Assembly (NCBI GenBank): GCA_016929195.1
Contig: JAFGJG010000048.1
Location: 1 to 42,710 of the forward strand
Origin: Thermoleophilaceae bacterium
GTDB taxonomy: Bacteria; Actinomycetota; Thermoleophilia; Solirubrobacterales; Thermoleophilaceae
Direction of reading: 5' to 3'
Length of the DNA stretch: 42,710 bases
The notes beneath the pieces are model-generated. The model was not told the DNA's origin. It did no database searches and worked only from the letters and a program-made list of their open reading frames with translations. Position 1 is the first letter of the stretch, and each line of letters starts with the position of its first letter. A program made the position numbers and the translations under genes. Positions 15,583 through 42,683 of this stretch are shown here, one piece after another.

Positions 15583-15972
15583 CTACTCGGCCGGGCCGAC
15601 CCGGCGCTGGGCCTCGTCGCGCTCCATGCCCTCGTAGCGCGTTATCAGGCCGTTCTCGATCTCCACGATCGCGGCGACGCTCCAGGTGAGGTCCACGCCG
15701 CTCGTGCGCCCGCGCGCGACCTCCTTCAGGTGCAGCAGCAGGCGGCCGTCCGGGAGGACGCGCACGTCCTCGAGCTCGTTCACGTACTCGTCCCACGCGC
15801 CCATGTAGCTCCGCAGGAAGGCGAGCAGGGCGTCGCGGCCCTTCGCGGTCCCGCCGGGATGGGGCGTGGACCACTCGACGTCCTCGGCGAACACCTCGAT
15901 CCCGAACTCGCCGCGGCGCCAGGCGTCGTAGAGCGAGCGGATGAGCTCGACCTTCGCCTGGTCGCTCGTCAT
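15583..15972 (-). CDS. SnoaL/NTF2-like protein
   Basis: A 129-residue cone-shaped NTF2-like domain. It begins with helices QAKVELIRSLYDAWRRGEF, has the strand VEWSTPHPGGTAKGRDALLAFL (W and P positions typical of SnoaL-like proteins), and ends with four strands including DLTWSVAAIVEIENGLITRYEGM. Members are cyclases, isomerases, or ligand-binding proteins without catalysis, so no reaction can be assigned. It overlaps the upstream SAH-hydrolase-like gene by 4 nt (15969-15972), which ties its expression to the methyl-cycle genes. Confidence 0.85.
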   Translation of the reverse strand: MTSDQAKVELIRSLYDAWRRGEFGIEVFAEDVEWSTPHPGGTAKGRDALLAFLRSYMGAWDEYVNELEDVRVLPDGRLLLHLKEVARGRTSGVDLTWSVAAIVEIENGLITRYEGMERDEAQRRVGPAE

Positions 15973-17210
15973 GCCGGGTGGCCGGTCCAGGCGCTCAGGT
16001 ACTCCTCCTGCTCCGGCGTGAGCGTGTCGATCGCGACGCCGAGCGACTCCAGCTTCAGGCGCGCGATCGTGTCGTCGATCTCGCGCGGCACGTCGAGCAC
16101 GCGATGCTCGAGCGAGTCGCCGAGCAGCACCAGGTGCTCCACGGCCAGCGCCAGGTTGGCGAAGCTCATGTCCATCACGGCCGCGGGGTGGCCCTGGCCG
16201 GCGGCCAGGTTCACGACCCGTCCCTGGGCCAGGAGGTTCAGGCGGCGGTCGCCGAGGTCGTACTGCGTGACGAGCGGCAGCACCTCGCTCACCCGGTCCT
16301 CGGCGAGCGAGGCGAGCGCGTCGAGGTCGATCTCCACATCGAAGTGCCCGGCGTTCGCCAGGATCGCTCCGTCCTTCATCCGCTCGAAGTGCTCGCGCCC
16401 GAGCACGCGCCGCGAGCCGGTGACCGTGACGAACAGGTCACCGCGCTCCGCGGCGTCGAGGGCCGGCATGACCTCGAAGCCGTCCATCCGCGCGTCGAGC
16501 GCCCGCACCGGGTCGACCTCGCAGACGATCACCGCCGCCCCGGCCCCGCGGGCGCGCGTGCTGATGCCGCGGCCGGTCGCGCCGTAGCCGAGCAGGACGA
16601 GCGTGCGGCCCGCCAGCAGGATGTTCGTCGCGCGCAGGATCCCGTCGAGCGCCGACTGGCCGGTGCCGTGCCGGTCGTTGAAGGTCCGCTCGGTCCGCGA
16701 CTCGTTCACCGCGAGCACCGGGCACGCCAGCCGGCCCTCGGCCTCGAGCCGGCGCAGCCGCAGCAGGCCCGTCGTCGTCTCCTCGGCGCCGCCGCGGAGC
16801 GAGTCCGCCTCACCGCGCTCGTGGAGCAGCACGAGCAGGTCGGCCCCGTCGTCGAGCGTCACGTCGGGACCCCAGTCGGCCAGCACGCCGACGTGCTCGG
16901 CATATGCGGCCGCGTCCTCGCCGCGCCGTGCCCGCACCGGGACGCCGAGCTTCACGAGCGCCGCCGCCACGTCGTCCTGGGTGGTGAGCGGGTTGGCCGA
17001 GCAGAGCGCCGTCTCGGCGCCCCCGGCCGCCAGCGCCCCCATCAGGTTCGCCGTCTCGGCGGTGACGTGCAGGCACGCCGCCACCTTCATCCCGTCGAGC
17101 GGCCGCTCCGCCTCGAAGCGGCTGCGGATGGACCGCAGGACCGGCATCTGGCCGGCGGCCCATTCGATCCGGGCCGCCCCCGAGGAGGCGAGGCCCGGAT
17201 CGGCGATCAC
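15969..17210 (-). CDS. Adenosylhomocysteinase-family paralogue, short archaeal-like type, altered active site
   Basis: A 413-residue member of the SAH hydrolase family, lacking the roughly 40-residue insert and the C-terminal Lys/Tyr tail of the bacterial type. Conserved positions are H48 (CLHVTAETANL), D120/D121 (LDDGAD), E143 (EETTTG), the NAD-binding glycine loop GYGATGRG (208-215), H289 (AGHFDVEID) and H341 (GQGHP). The substrate-ribose segment is changed. Where canonical enzymes have a Lys and an Asp (TKSKFDN in the adjacent paralogue), this protein has TERTFND: E174 replaces Lys and N178 replaces Asp. It may therefore be inactive, have a different nucleoside substrate, or be regulatory. 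It starts 4 nt after the end of the canonical gene in the same operon. Confidence 0.88.
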   Translation of the reverse strand: MIADPGLASSGAARIEWAAGQMPVLRSIRSRFEAERPLDGMKVAACLHVTAETANLMGALAAGGAETALCSANPLTTQDDVAAALVKLGVPVRARRGEDAAAYAEHVGVLADWGPDVTLDDGADLLVLLHERGEADSLRGGAEETTTGLLRLRRLEAEGRLACPVLAVNESRTERTFNDRHGTGQSALDGILRATNILLAGRTLVLLGYGATGRGISTRARGAGAAVIVCEVDPVRALDARMDGFEVMPALDAAERGDLFVTVTGSRRVLGREHFERMKDGAILANAGHFDVEIDLDALASLAEDRVSEVLPLVTQYDLGDRRLNLLAQGRVVNLAAGQGHPAAVMDMSFANLALAVEHLVLLGDSLEHRVLDVPREIDDTIARLKLESLGVAIDTLTPEQEEYLSAWTGHPA

Positions 17211-17214
17211 GGAG

Positions 17215-18641
<1,427 letters not shown>

Positions 18642-18645
<4 letters not shown>

Positions 18646-28446: not shown

Positions 28447-30090
28447 CTACTCCCCGGCGCCGCCCTCAAGGCGAGAGAAGGGCTCAGCCTGAGCGAGCCG
28501 CTCGGCGGCCTTCCGCCGCAACCTCTCGTAGAAAGCCGGGGGCATCCTCACCGGCGGACCGAACTGAGCCGAGACCACGGTCTCCCTCCGGGAGCGAGGC
28601 GTGCGAAGGCTCTGCCCGGGAAGCCTCCAATTCGCGCCGAGGTGGTCGCCGACGGTCGGCAGGACGTCGGTCGTCCTCACCGCCGCTCGCGAGAGCTCCG
28701 GCCGTGTCTGCCCCGGCGCCTTGACGAAGAGAGGGACTCCCGCGATCTCACCGAAGGTCTCGACGGCCACGTTCCGCCGCGACTTCCCGGGAACGAACGC
28801 GACACCGTGATCGGCGGTCACGATCACGAGAGCCCGGTCCCAGATGCCTCTTCGCTCGAGCCGGTCGATCAGCTGACCCAGCAGGCGGTCCGTGAAATCG
28901 AGCTGCGCGAGATAGCGCGACTCCCCTTGCTCGACCACGGCCGAGTCGGTCGTCCACGTCTCCCCGGTCAGCCCGGGGGTCACAAGGCTCTCCGAGTACC
29001 GGCCGTGGCCGGCGTATTGGTACGGGTTGTGCGGCAACTCGATGTGCAGCACGTTGAGCCCATCCACAATGCCGGCCGACCATGACTCGAAGTCCTCGGC
29101 TCTCGTATCCAGGGCGTCCTGCGGCAGGCCGACCCGGTCAGGCAGGTCGCCTCTGCGGAGTCTCCGCTTGGTCAGATCGACCATGCTCGAGATCAACTCA
29201 CGAGCGTGGGTCGTCCATGCCCCGTCGTCGCACCCTCGGCCGCACAGGTCGGTGATCGGCTCCTCGACGTTGAATGGACCGCTGACTCGGTCGAATATCG
29301 ACGGCGGAAGTTCCGATGCGATCGGCAGCGCGTCCTTTGCCGGCATCCGCCCGGTCAGGATGGCCGGCACCGCCCGCGTCGTGTTGTCGGCCACGGTCGT
29401 GGCATTCGGAAACCACGTCGACGTACGGGCAATGCGACGGAAGGCGCCAAGGCGGTTGTCGATCTCGCCGCCTTCGCCCAGAGACGCGGCGGAGAGCTCG
29501 TCGAAAATCACGAGCACGACGGGCACGCTCACCTGCGTCCGCCCCACCTCCTGGCCGTCGTCGGCCCCGAATGCGATCTCGGACACCCTCGAGAAGCCGA
29601 GGAACCACACGAGCGCCACCAGAGGCAGCGGAGCCAGGACGGACAGGAGCGTCGGGACGAACCGTCCGCGGGCATAGAGGAAGCCGAAGAAGACGCCGGC
29701 GAGGATCGCGATCAGGACGAGCGAGCGCCGACCGGGATCGAACTCACCCTTGAGCACCTGGAGCACCAGAGCGGCGAACAAGCCCCCGAGGACGACCTGC
29801 CGGAGCACGCGGCCGGCGGGCGGCCACCTCCCAAGGCACGCCTCGGCCACCGTCACCGCGGTCGGCGGCACGAGCACGAGCGCGGCCGCGACCAGTGGCA
29901 GATCGGGCCAGCCGTTGTCCTGTGCCACCAGGTAGTCGGGGCTGTTGTCGAACAGCTGGAACAGCGGGAACGCGATGGCGAAGGTCCAGAGGACGGCGAC
30001 ATGCATCCACGACTCGGCGAGGTCGCGCCATGGCGGCAGCGCACGACGAGGAAAGGCGCCTCCGGTGGATTGTGCGGTCCCGGTCAGGAT
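28447..30090 (-). CDS. Membrane-anchored sulfatase-fold enzyme 1 (alkaline phosphatase superfamily)
   Basis: About 547 residues: roughly four to five N-terminal helices, then a large extracytoplasmic domain of the sulfatase/phosphoglycerol-transferase type. Visible are VVLVIFDELSAASL (metal-binding Asp), a Thr-rich nucleophile region NTTRAVPAILTGR, LHIELPHNPYQY and VTADHGVAFVPGKSRRN (metal Asp/His). There is no C-x-P-x-R sulfatase signature, so a transferase or phosphodiesterase like LtaS is more likely than a true sulfatase. C-x-x-x-C (TDLCGRGC) may form a disulfide. The only ATG (30006) cuts off residues homologous to the next gene's N-terminus; no ATG, GTG or TTG precedes it in frame, so I propose ATC 30090. 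It is a tandem paralogue of 30139-31812. Confidence 0.82.
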   Translation of the reverse strand: MLTGTAQSTGGAFPRRALPPWRDLAESWMHVAVLWTFAIAFPLFQLFDNSPDYLVAQDNGWPDLPLVAAALVLVPPTAVTVAEACLGRWPPAGRVLRQVVLGGLFAALVLQVLKGEFDPGRRSLVLIAILAGVFFGFLYARGRFVPTLLSVLAPLPLVALVWFLGFSRVSEIAFGADDGQEVGRTQVSVPVVLVIFDELSAASLGEGGEIDNRLGAFRRIARTSTWFPNATTVADNTTRAVPAILTGRMPAKDALPIASELPPSIFDRVSGPFNVEEPITDLCGRGCDDGAWTTHARELISSMVDLTKRRLRRGDLPDRVGLPQDALDTRAEDFESWSAGIVDGLNVLHIELPHNPYQYAGHGRYSESLVTPGLTGETWTTDSAVVEQGESRYLAQLDFTDRLLGQLIDRLERRGIWDRALVIVTADHGVAFVPGKSRRNVAVETFGEIAGVPLFVKAPGQTRPELSRAAVRTTDVLPTVGDHLGANWRLPGQSLRTPRSRRETVVSAQFGPPVRMPPAFYERLRRKAAERLAQAEPFSRLEGGAGE

Positions 30091-30138
30091 CCCCTCATCA
30101 GTGGATGGATACCCGGGCGCTTAGCGAATACTGCGTGC

Positions 30139-31812
30139 CTACTCGACCGTCTCCAGCTTGTCGAGGTCCGCCGCCGCCTGGTCAAGCAGCCGCACGTACC
30201 ACGACTTCGGCATGGTTACCTCCGGGCCGAACCCGGCCCAGACGCGAACCGTCTTGCGGTCGACAGGGGCGCGCAGGGAGTGCCCCTCGAGGTCCCAGTC
30301 CGCGCCGAGGTAGTCGCCGACCGTGGGTGCGAGGTCGATCGTCTGAACGGCGGCGTCGCTCGGACCACCGCTGGACTGGCCGGGAGCCTTGAGGAACATC
30401 GGCACTCCCGCGATCTGGCCGGCGGTCCCGGCGACGATGTTGCGACGGGACTCTCCAGGTGTGAAGGCCACGCCATGGTCCGCGCTGAGGATGAACAGGG
30501 ACCGGTCCCAGAGCCCGCGCCGCTTCAGCGAGGCGACAAGCTCCCCGAGCAGCAGGTCCGTGAACTGCGCCTGGTCGAGGTACAACCGGTAGCCGTCCGC
30601 CACGAGGCGAGGATCGGTCGTCCACTTCTCGAGCTCCAGGCCGGGCACGGTCCCCCCGCGCTCCTTGTGCAGCTCGCCCCGCGGCCCGTAGAGCCACGGG
30701 AAGTGCGGCAGCTCGATGTGGAGCATGTTGAACGTCCGGCCGCCGCGGACGTTCGCGATCCAGTCGCGGACCGTCTCCTTGCGCTCGGTGATGGTCTCCG
30801 GCGGCGTCACGACTTCGGTCGGCGCCTTTCCGGGCTCCAGCCGGCGGCGCTGGATCCGTGCCAGGTCCCTGACCAGCTGGCGTGAGCGCTCGGGCCACGA
30901 GTCCTTCACGCCCGGGCACCCGTGGCAGAAGTCGGTGGCGGGCTCGTTCGCGTTGACGTCCCACCCTTCGAGGCGCTCGAAGATGGACGGCGGGTAGTCG
31001 CCCGTCCAGGGCAGGGCCTCGGGGTCCGGGTTGAGGTGCCCCGTGAGGATCGCCGGAACGGCGTGGATGGTTCCATCGGCGACGGTGGTGGCGTTCCTGA
31101 ACCATGTGGCCTCGCGCGACAGGCGGGCCAGATTCGGGAAGCGGCCGGCCTCGATCTGCTGTCCGTCCATCATCGAAGCGGTCGAGAACTCGTCGAGCAC
31201 GACCATCACGACCGGCACCGGCTTCGTCGCTCCCGCGGGCGGGTCGTCCTCGCTCTGCGGCCAAGCGAAGGAAGCGACGGGCGTGAAGGCGAGAAACCAC
31301 ACCAGGACCGCCGGCGCCGCGAGCGACAGCACTCCGAGCATCGCCGGGACGAATCGGGTCCGGAGGTACAGGAACCCGATGCAACCGCCGATGACGAGCG
31401 CCGCCAGGGTGAGCGCCCTACGAGCGGGATCGAAGTTCTCCTTGAGGATCTGGACGACCAGCGCGGCCGCAAGCAGTGCCACGAAGGAGGCGTGAAGCCA
31501 GCGCTGGAGGGTCGGTCGGCGGTGGAGCAACGCCTCCAGTCCGACCAGGAGCGTGGGCGGCACGACCACGATCGCGAAGGCGACCAAGGGGGTGTCGGGC
31601 CACGCGTTGCCCCGGGCGACCAGGTAGTCACCCGAGTCGGCGAGGATCGTGAACAGCGGCTGTGCGAAGCCGAGGGCCCAGAGGCCCGCGAGATGCAGCC
31701 AGTTCGTGGCGTAGCCCCGCTTCGACAGGCGTGGCTCCTTCTCCCCGACTCCCCTGCTCAGGCCCTCGCGAAATGCGCCGAGGCGCGAGGGGCGGGCTGC
31801 GGCCATCGCCAT
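30139..31812 (-). CDS. Membrane-anchored sulfatase-fold enzyme 2 (alkaline phosphatase superfamily)
   Basis: A 557-residue paralogue of the following gene. Hydrophobic helices are at about 38-58, 73-93, 106-124, 134-152 and 158-178. An extracytoplasmic catalytic domain follows with VVMVVLDEFSTASM (D207), ADGTIHAVPAILTGHL (Thr in the nucleophile region near 248), MLHIELPHFPWLYG and SADHGVAFTPGESRRN. A Cys pair (C296, C299; DFCHGC) is shared in position with the paralogue. Proteins of this plan add or remove phosphoglycerol, phosphoethanolamine or sulfate groups on surface polymers; the group handled here is unknown. The ATG at 31812 has TAAATT exactly 6 nt upstream and no Shine-Dalgarno. It is divergent from the flippase gene. 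Confidence 0.86.
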   Translation of the reverse strand: MAMAAARPSRLGAFREGLSRGVGEKEPRLSKRGYATNWLHLAGLWALGFAQPLFTILADSGDYLVARGNAWPDTPLVAFAIVVVPPTLLVGLEALLHRRPTLQRWLHASFVALLAAALVVQILKENFDPARRALTLAALVIGGCIGFLYLRTRFVPAMLGVLSLAAPAVLVWFLAFTPVASFAWPQSEDDPPAGATKPVPVVMVVLDEFSTASMMDGQQIEAGRFPNLARLSREATWFRNATTVADGTIHAVPAILTGHLNPDPEALPWTGDYPPSIFERLEGWDVNANEPATDFCHGCPGVKDSWPERSRQLVRDLARIQRRRLEPGKAPTEVVTPPETITERKETVRDWIANVRGGRTFNMLHIELPHFPWLYGPRGELHKERGGTVPGLELEKWTTDPRLVADGYRLYLDQAQFTDLLLGELVASLKRRGLWDRSLFILSADHGVAFTPGESRRNIVAGTAGQIAGVPMFLKAPGQSSGGPSDAAVQTIDLAPTVGDYLGADWDLEGHSLRAPVDRKTVRVWAGFGPEVTMPKSWYVRLLDQAAADLDKLETVE

Positions 31813-31895: not shown

Positions 31896-33248
31896 GTGCC
31901 CGAAAGCGCCACGACCGACGGCGGCCCTCAGGGGCCGCACCGGCTCGCCCGGGCGGCACGCAGCGACCGGCAGCTCCTGGCCCGGTCTTCGATCACCCTG
32001 GTCTCGCGCGGGCTCTCGAAGTTCGCGCAGATCTTCTTCCTCGTCATCGCCGCCCGGCTGCTGACGGTCGAGGAGTTCGCGTCCTACTCGTACCTGATCG
32101 TCCTGGCGGCGGCCTTCACGATCATGAGCGACACCGGCGTGCCGCTCGTCGCCGGCCGCGACGCCTCCGCTGGCCGCGGCTCGGTCGGCGAGCTGTTCTG
32201 GTCCTCGCTCCCGATCGTGCTCGTCACCTCGCTGGTGGCGGCTGTCCTGCTCCCCATCTTCGGCGCCGTCGACTCCGGGCCCGGCAGCACCTGGGCGCCC
32301 GTCCTGCTGACGGCATTGTTCGTCATCTTCAACCGCTTCCTCGACCTGATCTGCCAGCTGCTGCGCGGCGACGGGCGCTTCGAGCTCGAGGCGGCCCTCC
32401 AGATGGCCGGCGCCGTCCTCTTCATCGGAGGCGGGATCGCCGTGACCGTCGCGGGCTACGGCGTGACCGCGGTGATGGGCGTGTTCTGCGTCAAGGAGCT
32501 GCTGATCGCGGCCATCGGCTTCTGGGCCATCCGCAAGGACGTCCTCCACCCCGACGGCGGCCGGCCGCGCTCCGACTGGCGGCGCCTGCTCAGCATCGGC
32601 ATCCGGCTGGCGATCGCGGGCATCGCGCTGGCGCTCGCCATGCGGATACCGCTGGCGGTGCTCGGCAACGTGGGCAGCGCGACCGAGGTGGCCCTCTTCT
32701 CGGCCGCGCAGCGCTTCGGGGACGGCGCGTACGTCCTGGCGATCACGGGCGGGTTCGCGCTGCTGCCGGGCATCGCGTACCTGGCCCAGAGCGAGCCGGA
32801 CCGTGCACGGCGGCTGCTCCGCCGCGTGCTGATCGCCGTCGTCGGCGCCAGCGCGCTGCTCGCGGTCGTCGCGGTGCCCCTGGCCGAGCCGATCATGCGG
32901 CTCGTCTTCGGCGGCGACTTCGCCGGCGGGGACGACCTCTTCCGGATCATCGTCGCCGGGCTGCCCGCCTACACGGGCCTCGGGATCTGCTGGTACGCGG
33001 TGGTGGCGTTCGACGGCGAGGCGCGGCTGCTCGGCGTGGGCCTCGCGAGCCTGCTCAGCTGCGCCGTCCTCTCGGCGGTGCTGATCCCGGCCGCCGCCGA
33101 CGAGGGCGCCGCCTGGGCCTACGTGGGCTCGCTGTACGCGACGGCGCTGCTCTCGTACGTCGCGCTCGACCGCCAGCTCCGCTCGCGGCCCGCGCACCCG
33201 GCCGCGCCCGCCCCCGCCGGGCAGCCGACCGCGTTGGCCGCCGAATGA
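31896..33248 (+). CDS. Polysaccharide flippase (Wzx/MATE-like, PST family)
   Basis: A 450-residue polytopic membrane protein with about 12 helices and short loops. The amphipathic start LLARSSITLVSRGLSKFAQIFFLVIAARLLTVEEFASYSY is the typical opening of Wzx-type flippases in the MOP superfamily, and the late segment MRLVFGGDFAGGDDLFRI also fits. These proteins move undecaprenyl-linked glycan repeat units across the membrane. The C-terminus is an Ala/Pro-rich tail. The start is GTG at 31896 with a -10-like box 6 nt before it. The stop overlaps the start of the next glycosyltransferase by 4 nt, and a Wzy-like polymerase lies further on, so this looks like a Wzx/Wzy-dependent locus. Confidence 0.9.
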   Translation: MPESATTDGGPQGPHRLARAARSDRQLLARSSITLVSRGLSKFAQIFFLVIAARLLTVEEFASYSYLIVLAAAFTIMSDTGVPLVAGRDASAGRGSVGELFWSSLPIVLVTSLVAAVLLPIFGAVDSGPGSTWAPVLLTALFVIFNRFLDLICQLLRGDGRFELEAALQMAGAVLFIGGGIAVTVAGYGVTAVMGVFCVKELLIAAIGFWAIRKDVLHPDGGRPRSDWRRLLSIGIRLAIAGIALALAMRIPLAVLGNVGSATEVALFSAAQRFGDGAYVLAITGGFALLPGIAYLAQSEPDRARRLLRRVLIAVVGASALLAVVAVPLAEPIMRLVFGGDFAGGDDLFRIIVAGLPAYTGLGICWYAVVAFDGEARLLGVGLASLLSCAVLSAVLIPAAADEGAAWAYVGSLYATALLSYVALDRQLRSRPAHPAAPAPAGQPTALAAE

Positions 33249-34045
33249 GCGACGCCACACCGCGCGTCAGCGTGATCCTGCCCGCGTACAACGCGGAGGC
33301 CGTCGTGCGCCGCGCCATCGACTCGATCCTCGCCCAGACGATGCCGGACTTCGAGCTGATCGTGGTCGACGACGGGTCGGAGGACGGGACGGCGGCCGTC
33401 GTGGGCGAGGTGGCGGATCCGCGCGTGCGGTACGTGCGCCGCGAGCACGCGGGGCTGCCCGCCACGCTCAACGCCGGTCTCGCCGAGGCGCGGGCGCCGG
33501 TCGTGGCCGTGCAGGACGCCGACGACTGGTCGCTGCCCGACCGGCTCGAGCGCCAGCTCGGGGTGCTCGACTCGCGGCCGGACGTGGCCGTGGTCGGCTC
33601 GCGGATGCCGGAGGTGGACGCCGAGGGCCGGGAGCTCACCTCGCGCGCGCCCTTCGAGCCGGGCGACGCCTACCACACGCTGATGCGTTTCAACCCGATC
33701 TCGAACCCGTCCTCGATGTACCGGCGCGAGGTCGTGTCCCGCCTCGGCGGCTACGACACGCGCTACGGGTGCGCCCCGGAATACGACCTCTGGCTGCGCG
33801 TATCCGACGGTCACGTCGTGATCGCCCTCGACGACCCGGTCGCGATCCGCACGCTCGACGGCGAGAACCTGTCGACCGTCCGGGAGCGCGTCTGCGTGGG
33901 CGACTCGATCCGGATGCGGCTGCGCGCGATGCGCCGCCGCCGCAGCCTGCGCGGAATCCCGTCGGTGGCGCGCTCGGCCATCTCGTACTCCCTCCCCACC
34001 GGCCTGAAGCACGCGCGCCGGCGGCGGCGCGGCCAGGGGATCTAG
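33245..34045 (+). CDS. Glycosyltransferase family 2 (GT-A)
   Basis: A 266-residue GT2 enzyme. Nucleotide-sugar binding begins at VSVILPAYNAEAVVRRAIDSI and FELIVVDDGSEDGT. The metal site is VAVQDADDWSLPDRLERQ (DxD). NPISNPSSMYRREVVSRLGGYD and the acceptor/base region PEYDLWLRVSDG complete the domain. There is no membrane helix, so it is cytoplasmic and would extend a lipid-linked repeat unit; the sugar is unknown. Translation is coupled to the flippase by ATGA at 33245-33248. Its last ten codons and TAG stop form most of a 37-bp sequence that is repeated exactly beyond the acyltransferase gene. The tail is Arg-rich (ARRRRRGQGI). Confidence 0.92.
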   Translation: MSDATPRVSVILPAYNAEAVVRRAIDSILAQTMPDFELIVVDDGSEDGTAAVVGEVADPRVRYVRREHAGLPATLNAGLAEARAPVVAVQDADDWSLPDRLERQLGVLDSRPDVAVVGSRMPEVDAEGRELTSRAPFEPGDAYHTLMRFNPISNPSSMYRREVVSRLGGYDTRYGCAPEYDLWLRVSDGHVVIALDDPVAIRTLDGENLSTVRERVCVGDSIRMRLRAMRRRRSLRGIPSVARSAISYSLPTGLKHARRRRRGQGI

Positions 34046-34048
34046 GCG
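34012..34048. repeat. 37-bp direct repeat, copy 1
   Basis: Identical to 35435-35471. It contains the last ten codons and the TAG of the glycosyltransferase gene plus three following bases. It borders the acyltransferase segment on the left, and identity ends sharply at 34049. Confidence 0.97.
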
Positions 34049-34117
34049 ACCGAGGCCAGCCGAGCGGTAGACCGTGGATAGACGGAGCAGCCGGGCCGCA
34101 CGACTGACTCGATTGGA

Positions 34118-35362
34118 TCACTGGGCGCTCTGCGGCTCCCGCACGTCTTGCGGCGACGCGTTCCTGCGACGTGAGCCCTTGCCCGGCCGGCGGTAGGGAA
34201 AGGTCCGGTGCTTCAGCCGCAGGATCGGGCGCTCGACGAGGTAATAGCTCGCCGCGGCGAGGGCGAGCGTCGCGACGAACGTGTAGGCACCCAGCAGTGG
34301 GACTGACTTAGGCAGCCACTCGAACTCTGGCCGGGCGTCGATGTAGTTGAAGACGTCCGCGTGGTAGAGGTAGAAGCCGTAGGACACGACGCCGATCCAG
34401 GCGAGTGCCCGTGTTCCCAGAACGCGTCGGAGCGCGCCGCCTGCGTGCTCGCCAAAGACCGCGGGGAGAAGCAGGAACAGGGCTGTGACGCCGTATGCAA
34501 CGTGTTCGAGGGTCCTGCCGCCCGTGGCCCCTCCCGGGCCCGAGATGAAGAGATACATCGTTGTGAAGGAAGCCAACGCCGAGACCCACATCAGGTTCGG
34601 GTGTTGCGACACGAATCGAACTGAGGCCTGTTGGCTTGAAAGCGCGACGCTGCCGATCGCGAGGGCCATTCCGAGCGCGAACCAGAGGAAGCTGCCGGGC
34701 AGCGTGTGGGCCAGCCAGCTGTTCCCCTGGCCGGCGGGAGGCGCAACAAGTATCCGGAAGGCCAGCGACGCCATTGTCAGCGCGGCCAAGAGCGCGATGT
34801 CGCCTCTGAGACGCCCGCGCCCGAGCCAGAAACCTGCCCAGGCGATCAACGGCAGCACGATGTAGAAGGTGACCTCGACGCAGAGCGACCACGCGACGCC
34901 GATGCCCCCTGCCCTCGTTGCGTCGAAGTACACCTGGCCGAATGCCGCGTGGATCCACCAGTCGTGACCGACGTCATTGTGCTGCAACACGACCACCACC
35001 ACGAACAGGGCGAGCCAGTACGCCGGCACGATCCGCAGCACGCGCCTCGTTGCGTACCCACTGAACGTCAGCTGCCGCCCGTTCTGCCTGGCCACCAGGA
35101 ACGGGCGGTAGAGCAGGAAGCCGGAGATCAGGAAGAAGATCGCCACCCCCTGCGCGGCGAGTTGCGGAGCCCACTCGAAGAACGGATGCTGCTCCGGCGT
35201 GCTCGTGTGGATCAGCAGGTGCGCGCCGAAGACGCACAACGCGGCCACCGCGCGCATGGCATCGAACAGTTCGAACTTCGGGTTGCCCGGTGGAGGAGCG
35301 ACGTTCGGGGCGTCCGCCCCGAACCCAGCATCTGAGACCTTCTCCGCGAGCGCCCCCTGCAC
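34118..35362 (-). CDS. Acyltransferase 3 family protein (OafA/YrhL-like), likely inserted gene
   Basis: A 414-residue membrane acyltransferase with about ten helices. Family marks are the N-terminal FDAMRAVAALCVFGAHLLIH (catalytic His), GVAIFFLISGFLLYRP, ATRRVLRIVPAYWLALF (conserved R-x-x-R-I-x-P) and the late SYGFYLYHADVF. Such proteins acetylate or otherwise acylate sugars of surface polysaccharides from the cytoplasmic acyl donor. The start is GTG 35362, with TAATCT 8 nt upstream. The gene and its upstream region have visibly more A/T at third positions than neighbours and sit alone on the minus strand between two 37-bp direct repeats, separating a glycosyltransferase from a polymerase gene. 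I read it as a recently acquired cassette. Confidence 0.92.
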   Translation of the reverse strand: MQGALAEKVSDAGFGADAPNVAPPPGNPKFELFDAMRAVAALCVFGAHLLIHTSTPEQHPFFEWAPQLAAQGVAIFFLISGFLLYRPFLVARQNGRQLTFSGYATRRVLRIVPAYWLALFVVVVVLQHNDVGHDWWIHAAFGQVYFDATRAGGIGVAWSLCVEVTFYIVLPLIAWAGFWLGRGRLRGDIALLAALTMASLAFRILVAPPAGQGNSWLAHTLPGSFLWFALGMALAIGSVALSSQQASVRFVSQHPNLMWVSALASFTTMYLFISGPGGATGGRTLEHVAYGVTALFLLLPAVFGEHAGGALRRVLGTRALAWIGVVSYGFYLYHADVFNYIDARPEFEWLPKSVPLLGAYTFVATLALAAASYYLVERPILRLKHRTFPYRRPGKGSRRRNASPQDVREPQSAQ

Positions 35363-35370
35363 CGCGCGGC

Positions 35371-35376
35371 AGATTA
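35371..35376 (-). promoter_or_regulatory. Putative -10 box of the acyltransferase gene
   Basis: TAATCT on the minus strand, 8 nt before the GTG at 35362, with TTGCGC 18 nt further upstream as a possible -35. The gene therefore seems to carry its own promoter inside the repeat-bounded segment. Confidence 0.5.
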
Positions 35377-35434
35377 CTTACGTATCTCTTGATCGCGCAA
35401 GCTTGACTGAGTACAACGTGTCAGCCAATCGATC

Positions 35435-35471
35435 CGCGCGCCGGCGGCGGCGCGGCCAGGGGATCTAGGCG
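35435..35471. repeat. 37-bp direct repeat, copy 2
   Basis: Identical to 34012-34048, at a distance of 1423 bp. Here it overlaps the stop codon of the Wzy-like gene (35465-35467, minus strand). It also carries an orphan copy of the last ten codons and stop of the glycosyltransferase, with no glycosyltransferase sequence before it. Confidence 0.97.
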
Positions 35472-36973
35472 GCCGCGCCGGGCGTGGTCTGCGCCTCGGC
35501 GGTGGCGAACGCGCCGCCGAGCCGATTGCCGAGCGGGCCGAAGAGGTGGACCGCGATCAGGAACGGCATCGCGAACTCGATGAAGTACCCGATCGGCAGC
35601 GTGTAGGCGGTCGCGAGCGCCATGTAGAAGATCGAGGCGCATACGGCGTAGAGGCCGACCCGGTACCCGCGCCCGGCCTCCGGCCCCTTCAGCAGGGCGA
35701 GCATCAGCCGCCCGATCAGGCCGAAGAGGACGGCGCCGACCGCGATCCCCGGGAAGCCGAAGTCGTTGTAGAAGTCGCCGATGATCGTGTACGGCCGGCC
35801 GCCCTTCTGCGTGTCCTGCCAGATGAACTCGCGGAACTCCTGATCGGTCGACTGCGGCTTGTTCGCGATCAGCGGGCCGGGGACGTAGGACTTGAAGGCG
35901 TCCACGAGCCCGCCTCCGTACGCGTAGTCACGCTCCGACGGGATCGTGCTGGTGGCGGTGAACAGGATGTCGAACTCCGTCACGTCGTTGAGGATCCCGG
36001 AAGGGTCCACGATGTACTCGGGGGCGGCGAGGATCGCGCCGCCGATCGACTCGTCGTAGGTGGCCTGGCGGATGCCGAGCAGACCTGCGCCGAGGAGGAC
36101 GCACCCGACCATCGCGAGCACCACGGCCCTGCGCGACCAGGCGCGCCAGAGGTAGTGGGTGGTGAGCGCGACCATGAAGATCAGGAGCAGCACGCGCGTG
36201 CGCGAGCCGGCGAGCGACCAGAAGACGACGAGCTCGAGGGACGCGACTGCGAAGGTCGTCCACTCGAGCCGGTTCTGCGGCTTGAACCAGATGGCCCAGC
36301 AGAGGACCCCGATCGTGCCGAAGCCGAGCAGGAAGTGGTTGACGACCGGCGACCCGGCGTCCACGACCTTCGAGTCGAGCTGGCCCCGGAAGGCCTCGGC
36401 GGGACCGCCCGCGAGGGCCAGGGTGAGCACCTGGCCGACCAGGCCGATCGCGAGGCAGGCGAGCACCACGGTCCGGAAGTTCGGGCGCGGGACGCGCGCC
36501 CCGGCGTCGGCGATCCGCCCGCGCAGGCGACGGCCGACAGGCAGGAAGTACCCGATCACGAAGCAGACGAGGAAGAGCGTCACCGCCGCCATCGTCCGCG
36601 TGAGGGCGGGCTCGAGCGCCTCGTTCAGCTTCGTCGTGACGAACTGCGCGGTCTCGCCGCGGTCGAGAGTCAGCGCGGCCTGGTCGAGGTTCCTCGCCGG
36701 ATACCAGCTCTGGAGGTCCTCGGCGCCGAGGAACAGCTGGAGCGGGCGGATGCTGAACGACAGCAGGCTGACGCCGGCGACGATCGTGAGCGGCTCGAAG
36801 AAGCGCCGCTGCGCGATCGCCCTGACGAACAGGGGGAGCGCCACGAAGCCGGTGACCGCGAGCAGCAGCCAGGCCACGGGTGCGCCGGTGGCCGCGACCG
36901 CGATCCCGGACACGAGGATGGCCGCCGTCGCCGCGGCGACGAGGCCGCGCTCGAACGGGTCGAGCCGGCTCAC
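35465..36973 (-). CDS. O-antigen/polysaccharide polymerase (Wzy-like)
   Basis: A 502-residue membrane protein with about 12 hydrophobic helices and one large extracytoplasmic loop late in the sequence (about 340-405, containing EFDILFTATSTIPSERDYAYGG and AFKSYVPGPLIANKP). This topology, with the P-G-P-x-x-x-x-K-P stretch, is typical of oligosaccharide repeat-unit polymerases, which link repeat units on the outer face of the membrane. Sequence conservation in this family is poor, so the call rests on topology, these motifs and context. It overlaps the RmlD-like gene by 4 nt at its start (36970-36973). Its stop lies inside copy 2 of the 37-bp repeat. Confidence 0.85.
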   Translation of the reverse strand: MSRLDPFERGLVAAATAAILVSGIAVAATGAPVAWLLLAVTGFVALPLFVRAIAQRRFFEPLTIVAGVSLLSFSIRPLQLFLGAEDLQSWYPARNLDQAALTLDRGETAQFVTTKLNEALEPALTRTMAAVTLFLVCFVIGYFLPVGRRLRGRIADAGARVPRPNFRTVVLACLAIGLVGQVLTLALAGGPAEAFRGQLDSKVVDAGSPVVNHFLLGFGTIGVLCWAIWFKPQNRLEWTTFAVASLELVVFWSLAGSRTRVLLLIFMVALTTHYLWRAWSRRAVVLAMVGCVLLGAGLLGIRQATYDESIGGAILAAPEYIVDPSGILNDVTEFDILFTATSTIPSERDYAYGGGLVDAFKSYVPGPLIANKPQSTDQEFREFIWQDTQKGGRPYTIIGDFYNDFGFPGIAVGAVLFGLIGRLMLALLKGPEAGRGYRVGLYAVCASIFYMALATAYTLPIGYFIEFAMPFLIAVHLFGPLGNRLGGAFATAEAQTTPGAAA

Positions 36974-39052: not shown

Positions 39053-40015
39053 ATGGCAGCCGAGCCCACCTCTGCATATCCACAGTCGTCGCCGCACGCT
39101 GCGCCCGAAGAGGCGCCGCCGTTGCTCGAGATCGTGATCGTCGTCTCCGACGGCGCCCGCGACCACGTGCGCGCGTGCCTGGAGTCGCTGCGCCGGTTCC
39201 CGCTCGCGGCGGGGCCGATGGTCACGCACGTGATCGACAACGCCAGCTCCGACGGGACGGCCGAGATGATCCGCGACGAGTTCGACGAGGTCCAGCTCCA
39301 GACGCTGCCCTGGAACTCGGGGTTCTGCATCGCCAACAACGTCGTCCTGCGCAGGGCGAAGGCGCGCTACGTGCTGCTGCTCAACCCGGACACCGAGGTC
39401 ACCCAGGGCGCCCTCGACTTCATGATCCAGCTGATGGAGCAGCGGCCCGAGATCGGGATGTCGAGCTGCCGCCTGGTCCAGCACGACGGGACCTTCGACC
39501 ACGCCGCAAAGCGCTCGTTCCCCACGCCGCTCGGCGCGCTCGGGCACTTCACGGGCCTCGGCCGCCGGGCCAGCTCGGAAGGGCGGCTCGCCCAGTACCG
39601 CGCGCCGGAGCTCGACGAGCTAGACAGCGGCGAGGTGGACGCCGTCAACGGCGCCTTCATGCTCGTGCGCGACACAGCGCTGCGCGACGTCGGCCTGCTC
39701 GACGAGGGCTACTGGCTCTACATGGACGACCTGGACTGGTGCTACCGCTTCAAGCTCGCGGGCTGGAAGGTCTGGTACGACGGCTCGGTCACGTGCATTC
39801 ACGTGAAGGGCGGCACCACGGTGGAGGCGAAGAAGCGGGGCAGGCATCGCGGCCTCAAGCACAACCTCGCCTTCCACCGCAGCATGGGCCGCTTCTACCG
39901 GAAGTTCTACGCCGGGAAGCGCCCGGCGTTCGACGCTCTGATCTACGTCGCGATCATGGCCAAGTTCCTGGTCGCGGCCGTGCGCAGCACCGGCGCCCGC
40001 CGGCGCGTCTTCTAG
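39053..40015 (+). CDS. Glycosyltransferase family 2, rhamnosyltransferase-like
   Basis: A 320-residue GT2 enzyme of the WbbL/rhamnosyltransferase subgroup. It has LEIVIVVSDGARDHVRACLESL, HVIDNASSDGTAEMIR, NSGFCIANN, the metal site YVLLLNPDTEV and VNGAFMLVRDTALRDVG. The acceptor motif is WLYMDDLDWCYRFKLAGWKV, with a following IHVKGGTT. Its C-terminal helix (FDALIYVAIMAKFLVAAV) may touch the membrane. GAGAAG precedes the ATG and TAGCTT (39011-39016) is a possible -10 box, so this gene has a conventional leader. Its TAG overlaps the opposite-strand stop of the lipoprotein gene within a single CTAG (40012-40015). Confidence 0.9.
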   Translation: MAAEPTSAYPQSSPHAAPEEAPPLLEIVIVVSDGARDHVRACLESLRRFPLAAGPMVTHVIDNASSDGTAEMIRDEFDEVQLQTLPWNSGFCIANNVVLRRAKARYVLLLNPDTEVTQGALDFMIQLMEQRPEIGMSSCRLVQHDGTFDHAAKRSFPTPLGALGHFTGLGRRASSEGRLAQYRAPELDELDSGEVDAVNGAFMLVRDTALRDVGLLDEGYWLYMDDLDWCYRFKLAGWKVWYDGSVTCIHVKGGTTVEAKKRGRHRGLKHNLAFHRSMGRFYRKFYAGKRPAFDALIYVAIMAKFLVAAVRSTGARRRVF

Positions 40016-40500
40016 CCCCGGTCGAGGACCGGGTCGTCCAGGTCCACCAGGGCCGGCAGCAGCTTGGCGATCTTCCACTCGCCGTCGACACGCCTGACGG
40101 GGAAGGCGAGCGGCAGCCTGCCGGCCTTGCCGTCCTTCGTGCGGAAGAGGACGCGCGCCACCACCCGCACCCGCCCCGGCGCCTGGCGCTCGGTGGTGAC
40201 GAAGCGGACGCCCCTGAAGGTCGTGATCAGCCACTGGAGCTCCTCGGCGCGCCTGGCGAGCGCCTTCGGCTTCGCGCGGAGCGCCGGGTCGTAGAGGCGC
40301 ACGGCGGCCGCGGCGTCGCTGAAGACGGCCGCTCGGGCCCACTCCATCACGGTGCGCTCCGGAGTGCCCGCGGGCACTCGCTCCACGTCGGCCTGCCGGA
40401 TGACGCCCGGGTGGTTCAGGTAACGCACGTCCACGCCGTCGTCGCCGCAGCCGGTGGCGACGGCCGCGGCCGCCGCGAGGAGACAGAGCGCCCGTCTCAC
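40012..40500 (-). CDS. Putative lipoprotein 1, unknown function
   Basis: A 162-residue protein with a lipoprotein signal peptide (MRRALCLLAAAAAVATGC, lipidated C18). The mature part begins GDDGVDVRYLNHPG and carries ADVERVPAGTPERTVMEWARA, a strand-rich middle (RVRVVARVLFRTKDG) and EWKIAKLLPAL near the end. The latter half has the strand pattern of NTF2-like lipoproteins (EWKIxKL), but I cannot name a family. The stretch ADV-x3-PAG-x-PE-x2-V-x-EW is shared with the preceding gene, so the two are tandem paralogues. The start is GTG 40500, overlapping that gene's stop by 4 nt. Its stop shares CTAG with the convergent glycosyltransferase. Confidence 0.8.
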   Translation of the reverse strand: MRRALCLLAAAAAVATGCGDDGVDVRYLNHPGVIRQADVERVPAGTPERTVMEWARAAVFSDAAAAVRLYDPALRAKPKALARRAEELQWLITTFRGVRFVTTERQAPGRVRVVARVLFRTKDGKAGRLPLAFPVRRVDGEWKIAKLLPALVDLDDPVLDRG

Positions 40501-41036
40501 TGGGGCATGCCCTTCAGCGCGGGGTCGATCCGCACGTCCGAGAGCGTGGCCAGGAAGAGGTCGTCCGCGAGCCGCCATCCGTTCGGGCCGCGGACCAGGT
40601 GGAACGCGCGCGGCCTCCGCACGACGTCGCGGCGGCCGTTCGGGGCCTCGCGCTCGGTGAGCGTCATGACGTAGACGGTCGCCGTCCGGCCGCGCCTCGT
40701 CACGTCGATGATCTTCGGCATGCCCATGAGGCGCCACTGGTTGACGGCCACCTGACGGATGAACTTGAGCTCCTCCAGCCTCCCGATGGTGCCGGGCGGG
40801 AGGTAGCGCCGCGCCTCGGCGAGCTCGTTCTGCTGCATCAGGCGCAGCCACTCGACGACCGCCTGCTCCGGCGACCCGGCCGGAAGCGCCGTGACGTCGG
40901 CCTCCGAGATCTGGCTGCCGTGGGGCGGGCCGGCTGGCTTCGAGAGCTCCCCGCAGCCCGCCGCGAGCGCCAGGAGCACGGATAGCAGGGCGGCTCCGCA
41001 CCCACGTGAGAGTGTGCTTCGCCGCGAAAACCCGAT
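40497..41036 (-). CDS. Putative lipoprotein 2, unknown function
   Basis: From ATC 41036 the protein is 179 residues with a textbook lipoprotein signal: Arg-rich start, hydrophobic core GAALLSVLLALAAGC and lipobox LAAGC. The mature part has EADVTALPAGSPEQAVVEWLR and continues with strands ATVYVMTLTEREAP and NGWRLADDLFLATL, an NTF2-like pattern shared with lipoprotein 1. The only ATG in frame (41138) would put 61 residues before the lipid-bearing Cys and overlap the divergent glycosyltransferase by 35 nt; no GTG or TTG lies before the signal core. CATTAT ends exactly 6 nt before this ATC. Function is not recognised; position suggests an outer-surface role in glycan assembly. Confidence 0.75.
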   Translation of the reverse strand: MGFSRRSTLSRGCGAALLSVLLALAAGCGELSKPAGPPHGSQISEADVTALPAGSPEQAVVEWLRLMQQNELAEARRYLPPGTIGRLEELKFIRQVAVNQWRLMGMPKIIDVTRRGRTATVYVMTLTEREAPNGRRDVVRRPRAFHLVRGPNGWRLADDLFLATLSDVRIDPALKGMPQ

Positions 41037-41042
41037 GTGGCC

Positions 41043-41048
41043 ATAATG
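41043..41048 (-). promoter_or_regulatory. Putative -10 box of the lipoprotein pair
   Basis: CATTAT on the minus strand ends 6 nt before the in-frame ATC at 41036. That distance places the transcript start on the ATC itself. Confidence 0.4.
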
Positions 41049-41103
41049 GCACAGGCGCCCGCCCCGCCCGCCGTACGAACCCAGCCCTCGAAAAGACTCT
41101 CTG

Positions 41104-42129
41104 ATGCCCCCACCGGCGATCTCCGCCGTCGTCGTCAACTATCGGCGGCCCGACATACTCGGCACCTGCCTCGCCTCGCTCGGGGAGGCGCTCGGGCGCG
41201 TGGCCGAGCCGACCGAGCTGGTGGTCATCGACAACGCGTCCGGCGACGAGTCCTGCGACGTCGTGCGCCGTGTGGCCCCGGACGCGCAACTGCTCGTGAT
41301 GGACAGGAACCTCGGGTTCGCCGCCGTCAGCAAGGGGATAGCGGCGTCGACCGGCGAGTGGGTGCTGTTCGTGAACAACGACGTCGAGATGGACCCCGAG
41401 GCGGCCCGGCTGATGCTCGAGGCCGGCCGCTCGGACGCGCGAATCGGGTCGGTGGCGGCGCAGATGCGCTTCGCGAACCGGCCCGACACGATCAACTCGG
41501 CCGGCATCGGGATCGACTGCCTCGGCATCGCCTTCGACCGGCTGCTCGGCGAGCCCCTGTCGGCCAGCGAGCCGGAGCCGACGGAGGTCTTCGGCGCATC
41601 CGGCGGCGCCGCGCTCTATCGACGCGAGATGCTCGACGACATCGGCGGGTTCGACGAGAGCTACTTCTTCGTGCTCGAGGACGCCGACGTGGCCTGGCGC
41701 GCGAGGATGCGCGGCTGGCGCTGCATGTACGTGCCGGGCGCCGTGGTGACGCACCACCACGGGGCGACGATGCCCCACGGCTCGAGCACCAAGTACTTCC
41801 AGGTGGGCCTCAACCGGGTCCGGACGCTGGCCAAGAACGCCGAGGCGAGGCACCTGCTGCGTCACGGACCGGCGATGATTGGATATGACATCGCCTACGT
41901 GACCTTCGCCGCCGCCACAGACCGAACCCTCGCCCCGCTCCGCGGCCGCCTCAAGGGCCTGCGCCAGTGGCGGCGCTACCGCCGCGCCGGCGCGGACCTG
42001 CGCGCGCCGGTCGATCTCGCCCCGACCAGGGGCCTGCGCGCGGCCCTCGGGCGCCGCGCCGTCTGGCACGGCAACTCGACGGCGCTCCGATCGAACGGCG
42101 CGTCGGCCCGCGAGGAGGTCGTCTCGTGA
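41104..42129 (+). CDS. Glycosyltransferase family 2
   Basis: A 341-residue GT2 enzyme beginning MPPPAISAVVVNYRRPDILG. ELVVIDNASGDESCDVV, NLGFAAVSKGI and the metal site WVLFVNNDVEMDP follow. GASGGAALYRREMLDDIGGFDE and FFVLEDADVAWRARMRGWRC form the acceptor/base region, with YVPGAVVTHHHGATM after it. It resembles WbbL-type rhamnosyl- or galactofuranosyltransferases; the exact donor is unknown. The C-terminal third (about 245-341) is basic and may bind the membrane or a partner. Its stop overlaps the rmlC start by 4 nt (42126-42129), which ties it to deoxyhexose supply. It is divergent from the lipoprotein pair across a 67-nt gap. Confidence 0.9.
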   Translation: MPPPAISAVVVNYRRPDILGTCLASLGEALGRVAEPTELVVIDNASGDESCDVVRRVAPDAQLLVMDRNLGFAAVSKGIAASTGEWVLFVNNDVEMDPEAARLMLEAGRSDARIGSVAAQMRFANRPDTINSAGIGIDCLGIAFDRLLGEPLSASEPEPTEVFGASGGAALYRREMLDDIGGFDESYFFVLEDADVAWRARMRGWRCMYVPGAVVTHHHGATMPHGSSTKYFQVGLNRVRTLAKNAEARHLLRHGPAMIGYDIAYVTFAAATDRTLAPLRGRLKGLRQWRRYRRAGADLRAPVDLAPTRGLRAALGRRAVWHGNSTALRSNGASAREEVVS

Positions 42130-42683
42130 AGCGGCTCGAGACACGCCTCGACGGTCCGATCCTCGTGGAGCCGGTGGTCCACGGCGACCACCGCGGCTTC
42201 TTCCACGAGACCTACCGCCGCAACGTGTACACGGAGCTGGGGATCCCGGACGAGTTCGTCCAGGACAACCATTCGCGCTCGAAGCGCGGGATCGTGCGCG
42301 GCATGCACTTCCAGGTCGGGGACGGGATGTCGAAGCTCGTCCGCTGCAGCCGGGGAGCCATCGTCGACGTGGTCGTGGACCTCCGCCGGGGGTCGCCCAC
42401 CTTCGGCGAGTGGGAGGCCTTCGAGCTGAACGACGAGAGCCTGCACCAGCTCTACTGCCCGATCGGCTTCGCCCACGGGTTCTGCGTCACGAGCGAGATG
42501 GCGGACGTGATGTACAAGTGCTCCGCCTACTACGACGAGTCGATCGAGCGGGGGATCAAGTACGACGACCCGGAGATCGGCATCCGCTGGCCCGACGTGG
42601 AGCTGATCCCGTCCGAACGCGATGCCACCGCGCCGCGTCTGAGCGAGATCGCGGACGAGCTTCCGTTCCGCTACGAGGTTTAG
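42126..42683 (+). CDS. rmlC: dTDP-4-dehydrorhamnose 3,5-epimerase (RmlC family)
   Basis: A 185-residue cupin. It has GDHRGFFHETYRRNVY, the signature DNHSRSKRGIVRGMHFQ with the catalytic H61, K70, the strand AIVDVVVDLRRGSPTFGEW, and CPIGFAHGFCVTSEMADVMYKCSAYYD with the candidate acid Tyr (Y130 or Y136). The end, GIKYDDPEIGIRWP, is nearly invariant in RmlC. The enzyme epimerises dTDP-4-keto-6-deoxyglucose at C3 and C5 on the way to dTDP-L-rhamnose. The start is GTG 42126, coupled to the preceding glycosyltransferase stop; a longer frame from 41967 would be a shadow. rmlA and rmlB are not in the window. The final 27 nt hold nothing recognisable. Confidence 0.94.
   Translation: MKRLETRLDGPILVEPVVHGDHRGFFHETYRRNVYTELGIPDEFVQDNHSRSKRGIVRGMHFQVGDGMSKLVRCSRGAIVDVVVDLRRGSPTFGEWEAFELNDESLHQLYCPIGFAHGFCVTSEMADVMYKCSAYYDESIERGIKYDDPEIGIRWPDVELIPSERDATAPRLSEIADELPFRYEV

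What the first reader, a model, noticed from the sequence alone, without database searches (positions are those of the whole stretch)
34012..35471. Acyltransferase cassette bracketed by a perfect 37-bp direct repeat that duplicates a gene end
34012-34048 and 35435-35471 are identical over 37 bp. The repeat is made of the last ten codons plus stop of the glycosyltransferase. Copy 2 is an orphan gene tail lying against the stop codon of the Wzy-like gene. Removing one repeat unit (1423 bp) rebuilds two convergent genes whose TAG stops overlap in one CTAG, an arrangement that still exists at 40012-40015 in this window. The removed unit holds only one gene, a glycan acyltransferase with its own promoter and more A/T-rich codons. 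This looks like an insertion event that left an att-like or very long target duplication, reminiscent of phage-borne O-antigen acetyltransferases, but with no integrase or transposase inside. A TCGATTGG/CCAATCGA inverted pair (34109-34116, 35425-35432) also flanks the gene but may be chance. Recombination or replication slippage are alternatives to a dedicated mobile cassette.
Basis: partly seen in the sequence, partly recalled or inferred. Interest (0 to 1): 0.8.

Follow-up and report, generated by a model that had tools for sequence, protein, structure and literature searches.

The report
Acyltransferase gene inserted with target duplication
In an uncultured-type actinobacterium, a single foreign sugar-decorating gene appears to have been pasted between two surface-polysaccharide genes, duplicating 37 bases of the junction; this looks like a one-off repair-type insertion of a kind already described in other bacteria, not a new mobile element.

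Summary
A 37-bp perfect direct repeat (40/41 when extended) brackets one PF01757 acyltransferase gene between a family-2 glycosyltransferase (GT) and a Wzy-type polymerase. The repeat occurs nowhere else in the draft genome (27-bp core, up to 3 mismatches). In 1.84 Mb of that genome no other isolated repeat this long brackets unique sequence. The repeat is the native GT 3' end: GT orthologs keep this tail. The reconstructed empty site (convergent genes overlapping in CTAG) is the commonest convergent arrangement in this genome. The acyltransferase is compositionally foreign (about 2nd percentile for GC and codon score). [quoted passage not shown] A dedicated mobile cassette is not supported: no integrase in the window, no third repeat copy, no repeats around homologous genes, phage acetylases only distantly related, the 8-bp inverted pair at chance level. 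The genome encodes three Ku and three LigD-polymerase genes, so end joining with fill-in (or template switching) would suffice; this is inferred. No empty allele was found, because the Wzy has no close relative in the genomes held. Closest known kind: "insertion with long target duplication", described for Helicobacter restriction-modification genes. New member of a known kind, with unusual cargo.

The parts
33245..34045 (+). Family-2 glycosyltransferase (target gene 1)
   Evidence: PF00535 E 2.9e-35; 46-55% orthologs in 11 genomes of the order, aligned to residue 264-265 of 266; C-terminal tail conserved
34012..34048 (+). Direct repeat copy 1 (native GT 3' end, stop, 3 bp beyond); 41 bp with one mismatch to 34052
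34049..35434 (.). Inserted segment, 1386 bp of unique DNA between the repeats, holding one gene
   Evidence: lower GC
34118..35362 (-). Integral-membrane acyltransferase, Acyl_transf_3, 414 aa, GTG start as listed
   Evidence: PF01757 E 3.4e-26; 34-45% homologues in 27 of 100 relatives; codon score at 1.9th percentile
35435..35471 (+). Direct repeat copy 2 (orphan GT tail spanning the Wzy stop)
35465..36973 (-). Wzy-type polysaccharide polymerase (target gene 2), convergent to GT
   Evidence: PF01901 E 1.7e-8; TIGR04370 54.3 bits over the 40-bit cut-off
31896..33248 (+). Wzx-type flippase upstream of GT (context)
   Evidence: PF01943 E 3.2e-16
40012..40015 (.). CTAG shared by the stops of another convergent pair in the window (comparison)
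   Evidence: ORFs 39053-40015 + and 40012-42144 -; sequence printed

Best explanation
A foreign 1.4-kb DNA fragment carrying a glycan acyltransferase gene was inserted into the convergent GT/Wzy junction of a surface-polysaccharide cluster in a Solirubrobacterales-type genome, in an event that duplicated 37 bp (perhaps 41) of the junction. Both neighbours stayed intact because the duplicated stretch is the GT 3' end plus the shared CTAG. Shown: the repeat, its uniqueness, its identity as the native GT end, the foreign composition of the cargo, and the absence of an integrase or transposase in the unit. Inferred: that the ancestral site was empty, and that the join was made by illegitimate repair, namely Ku/LigD end joining of a staggered break with long overhangs filled in around a captured fragment, or a replication template switch that returned 37-41 bp upstream. 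The gene probably O-acetylates or otherwise acylates the exported polysaccharide.
For: Perfect repeat, unique in the genome. GT tail conserved in orthologs, so the repeat is native target. Copy 1 and copy 2 match at 6 of the 7 bases after the GT stop, which the GT does not constrain (P 0.004; the three bases inside the perfect repeat alone P 0.026). This suggests the duplicated unit spanned the GT/Wzy junction. CTAG overlap is the modal convergent arrangement (34 of 223 pairs). Acyltransferase GC at the 1.8th and codon score at the 1.9th percentile of 1127 sampled ORFs, while GT, Wzy and Wzx lie at the 83rd-89th for codon score. Only isolated unique repeat of 30 bp or more at 0.4-8 kb spacing in 1.84 Mb of the genome. 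Three Ku genes and three LigD-polymerase genes; on contig C66 Ku and LigD-pol are neighbours.
Against: No empty allele was seen; the Wzy has no close relative in the genomes searched. The end-joining step rests only on the presence of the genes. A 37-41 bp overhang is long for simple end joining. The genome is a 193-contig draft, so an assembly mosaic is not fully excluded.
Confidence: 0.62

Rival explanations
1. Site-specific cassette: the 37 bp are attL/attR of a tyrosine recombinase acting in trans on a cargo-only unit that integrates at the GT 3' end.
For: Repeat rebuilds a gene 3' end, as attachment sites do; the repeat holds a 7-bp G+C hairpin stem; four Phage_integrase genes elsewhere in the genome.
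Against: No recombinase in the unit; no third copy of the site in the genome; hairpin no better than shuffles (z -0.7); homologous acyltransferases without flanking repeats over 12 bp, one truncated locus aside; target is an ordinary GT gene of uneven distribution.
Confidence: 0.12
2. Campbell-type homologous integration: a circular DNA carrying the acyltransferase and the same 37 bp recombined by a single crossover into the GT/Wzy junction.
For: Gives exactly this structure; circles formed between flanking repeats and reintegrated at a matching target are proposed for plant transposed genes (PMC2869330).
Against: The donor needs an identical 37-bp copy of a variable coding end; no other copy exists in the genome, and such a short stretch is a poor substrate for homologous recombination (general knowledge).
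Confidence: 0.15
3. Assembly mosaic of a draft genome: the two junctions come from different strains, or from a circle plus an empty chromosome.
For: 193 contigs, 3.2% contamination estimate.
Against: The acyltransferase sits within a 42.7-kb contig with GT and Wzy intact on both sides; a 37-bp repeat is shorter than the largest k-mers normally used (general knowledge). No reads were available.
Confidence: 0.07

Closest known systems
Insertion with long target duplication (Nobusato et al. 2000, Gene 259:99; known here through citing papers PMC1643837, PMC3031569, PMC4978471)
   Same: Gene insert between long direct repeats that duplicate the target; presented as a novel mode of gene mobility
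   Different: Cargo here is a single acyltransferase, not a restriction-modification system; no pair of strains with and without the insert to compare
Variable segments flanked by short direct repeats in E. coli, S. aureus and S. pyogenes (PMC2884548)
   Same: Small accessory segment bracketed by direct repeats; illegitimate recombination proposed as a main source of such diversity
   Different: Most repeats there are under 30 bp; here 37-41 bp and the repeat contains a gene end
Phage-borne O-antigen acetylases such as phage D3 orf28
   Same: Same broad acyltransferase type (27% identity over 73% of the query)
   Different: No phage gene was recognised in the window by Pfam; relatives in the same taxonomic order are far closer (up to 45%)
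Integrative elements at gene 3' ends (tyrosine recombinase)
   Same: Direct repeat restores the target gene's 3' end
   Different: No integrase, no repeated use of the site

Membership tests
Insertion with long target duplication | Long direct repeats flank an inserted gene and consist of target sequence | tested here: met
   37/37 and 40/41 repeat; repeat is native GT end
Insertion with long target duplication | Related genome with one copy and no insert | tested here: inconclusive
   No Wzy ortholog in 396 phylum genomes or the 84,980-genome collection at the sensitivity used
Insertion with long target duplication | No transposase or integrase in the unit | tested here: met
   The gene in the unit is PF01757; the other ORFs of 100 aa or more inside it overlap this gene
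Insertion with long target duplication | Cargo is a restriction-modification gene (typical, not strictly defining) | tested here: not met
   Cargo is Acyl_transf_3
Tyrosine-recombinase integrative element | Recombinase gene next to the attachment site | tested here: not met
   None in the window in Pfam scans of 29 ORFs; four elsewhere in the genome
Tyrosine-recombinase integrative element | Site occupied in several genomes or with several cargoes | tested here: inconclusive
   No other copy in the own genome; other genomes were not searched for the 37-mer itself
DDE transposon or IS | Terminal inverted repeats at the insert ends and a short target duplication | tested here: not met
   8-bp inverted pair at chance level and 60 bp from one end; duplication is 37 bp
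Acyltransferase family 3 (PF01757) | Score over the Pfam cut-off | tested here: met
   92.5 bits against 31

The most novel reading that the evidence does not exclude
The repeats are the working ends of a cargo-only, integrase-free gene cassette that moves glycan-modifying genes into convergent gene ends (CTAG junctions) in Solirubrobacterales, and can be lost by recombination between the repeats to switch acylation off.
Probability: 0.07. Interest if true: 0.75.

Novelty: new member of a known kind. Interest (0 to 1): 0.36.

Why it matters
It is a clear, probably recent footprint of how one accessory gene can enter a surface-polysaccharide cluster without any mobile-element enzyme in the inserted unit and without damaging either neighbour. 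It extends the restriction-modification-centred record of long-target-duplication insertions to a glycan-decorating gene, in a lineage rich in end-joining genes. If such events are frequent in Ku/LigD-rich bacteria, end joining could be a general route of single-gene acquisition; strain collections could test this.

Tried and rejected
Looked for the empty site through the Wzy in 40 relatives, 396 phylum genomes and the 84,980-genome collection: no ortholog. GT orthologs were found, but in the three read the 3' neighbour differs each time (in L011 convergent reading frames that were not scanned; an epimerase in L136; a group-1 GT in L137), so none is an empty allele. Looked for more cargo or site copies: none. 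Looked for repeats around homologous acyltransferases: none; the 40-bp value for L015 is an artefact of a truncated locus whose two test windows overlap. Phage and viral origin tested and plasmid origin: only distant matches. Hairpin in the repeat and 8-bp inverted pair rejected as signals. Simple replication slippage rejected: it does not bring in 1.4 kb of foreign DNA.

Full report
Observation. The repeat is real: 34012-34048 equals 35435-35471 at 37/37, and 40/41 if extended to 34052/35475. No match is expected in shuffled windows. A 27-bp core with up to three mismatches occurs only twice in the 3.46-Mb, 193-contig draft genome; the window is the whole of contig C59. Outside the repeat the flanks are unrelated (20-33% identity to the left; 32-35% on both sides).

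What the repeat is. In frame, copy 1 is A R R R R R G Q G I stop, the end of the GT. Three GT relatives at 49-53% identity keep the tail (LKRTLRRRLGQAP, LKRQRRRQIGQAP, FKRARRRRLGQAP), and all 11 ortholog matches in the order run to residue 264 or 265 of 266. So copy 1 is the native GT end and was not brought by the insert. The perfect repeat goes three bases beyond the stop, and six of the first seven bases match (P 0.026 and 0.004 by base composition). This suggests that the duplicated stretch ran across the GT stop into the end of the Wzy gene.

The empty site. Removing one unit leaves GT and Wzy convergent with TAG stops sharing CTAG. In an approximate gene call over 1.84 Mb of this genome, the 4-base overlap is by far the commonest convergent gap (35 of 223 pairs; 34 are CTAG). 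The reconstruction therefore gives an ordinary locus for this genome. It remains a reconstruction: the Wzy has no close relative among 40 relatives, 396 phylum genomes or the GTDB species collection at the sensitivity used.

The cargo. The single gene is an Acyl_transf_3 protein (PF01757, 92.5 bits). Its best relatives lie in the same family and order at 42-45% identity, phage D3 acetylase is at 27%, and none was confirmed in the viral contigs. GC is 66.6% against a sample mean of 72.5%, and its codon score lies at the 1.9th percentile while GT, Wzy and Wzx lie at the 83rd-89th. It is foreign by composition; the donor is unknown. Substrate and acyl group are inferred from context (Wzx, Wzy and GT genes).

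Is it a recurrent element? In the half of the genome read, other long repeats at 0.4-8 kb spacing fall into related flanks, internally repetitive stretches, a dispersed G+C-rich repeat or a contig-end overlap; none is an isolated repeat of 30 bp or more bracketing unique sequence (the classification is by flank identity and by eye). Apart from one truncated locus, homologous acyltransferases in relatives show at most 12-bp matches between their flanks (nine of these loci also). The other acyltransferase gene of the genome (L032) shows only an internally repetitive stretch on one side. There is no recombinase in the window by Pfam; four tyrosine recombinases lie on other contigs. The inverted 8-mers and the hairpin are at chance level. 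A dedicated cassette is therefore not supported, although an enzyme acting in trans cannot be excluded.

How it most likely arose. A 37-41 bp target duplication is too long for ordinary transposases (general knowledge). The genome carries three Ku genes, two of them in tandem on C64, and three LigD-polymerase genes, one beside Ku on C66. Filling in a staggered break while capturing a fragment gives this structure in one step; so does a template switch that resumes upstream of its departure point. Neither is proven here. Homologous integration of a circle is the next best rival.

Compared with what is known. Insertion with long target duplication was described from Helicobacter strain comparisons for restriction-modification genes (Nobusato et al. 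2000, as cited in PMC1643837, PMC3031569 and PMC4978471; the original was not read), and similar flanking repeats occur around transposed plant genes (PMC2869330). In three bacterial species 10-18% of small variable segments have flanking repeats, mostly under 30 bp (PMC2884548). The present case meets the structural features; the comparative feature could not be tested, and the cargo differs. Verdict: a well-preserved, probably recent insertion of a known kind, moderately interesting for its cargo and for the end-joining genes of the host.

Noticed in passing
L046, L054, L058, L071, L082, L219, L229, L235, L243 (other contigs of the same genome): A dispersed G+C-rich repeat with core GGGGGTCCGGGGGC, often in short tandem arrays with a 44-57 base period and often near contig ends (21 hits in 9 of 141 pieces).
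   Followed up: partly
L102:1-4225 (contig C68 of the same genome): A 4225-bp contig whose first and last 87 bases are identical, so it may be circular or a collapsed repeat; ORFs listed but not identified.
   Followed up: partly
window 15969-18645: Two adjacent genes both match S-adenosylhomocysteine hydrolase; the 413-aa one matches the first domain only in part.
   Followed up: no
G000:C64:14988-16299 and C66:5987-7654 (other contigs of the same genome): Three Ku and three LigD-polymerase genes in one genome, with a tandem Ku pair on C64.
   Followed up: partly
window 28447-31812: Two neighbouring sulfatase-family genes next to the polysaccharide cluster.
   Followed up: no
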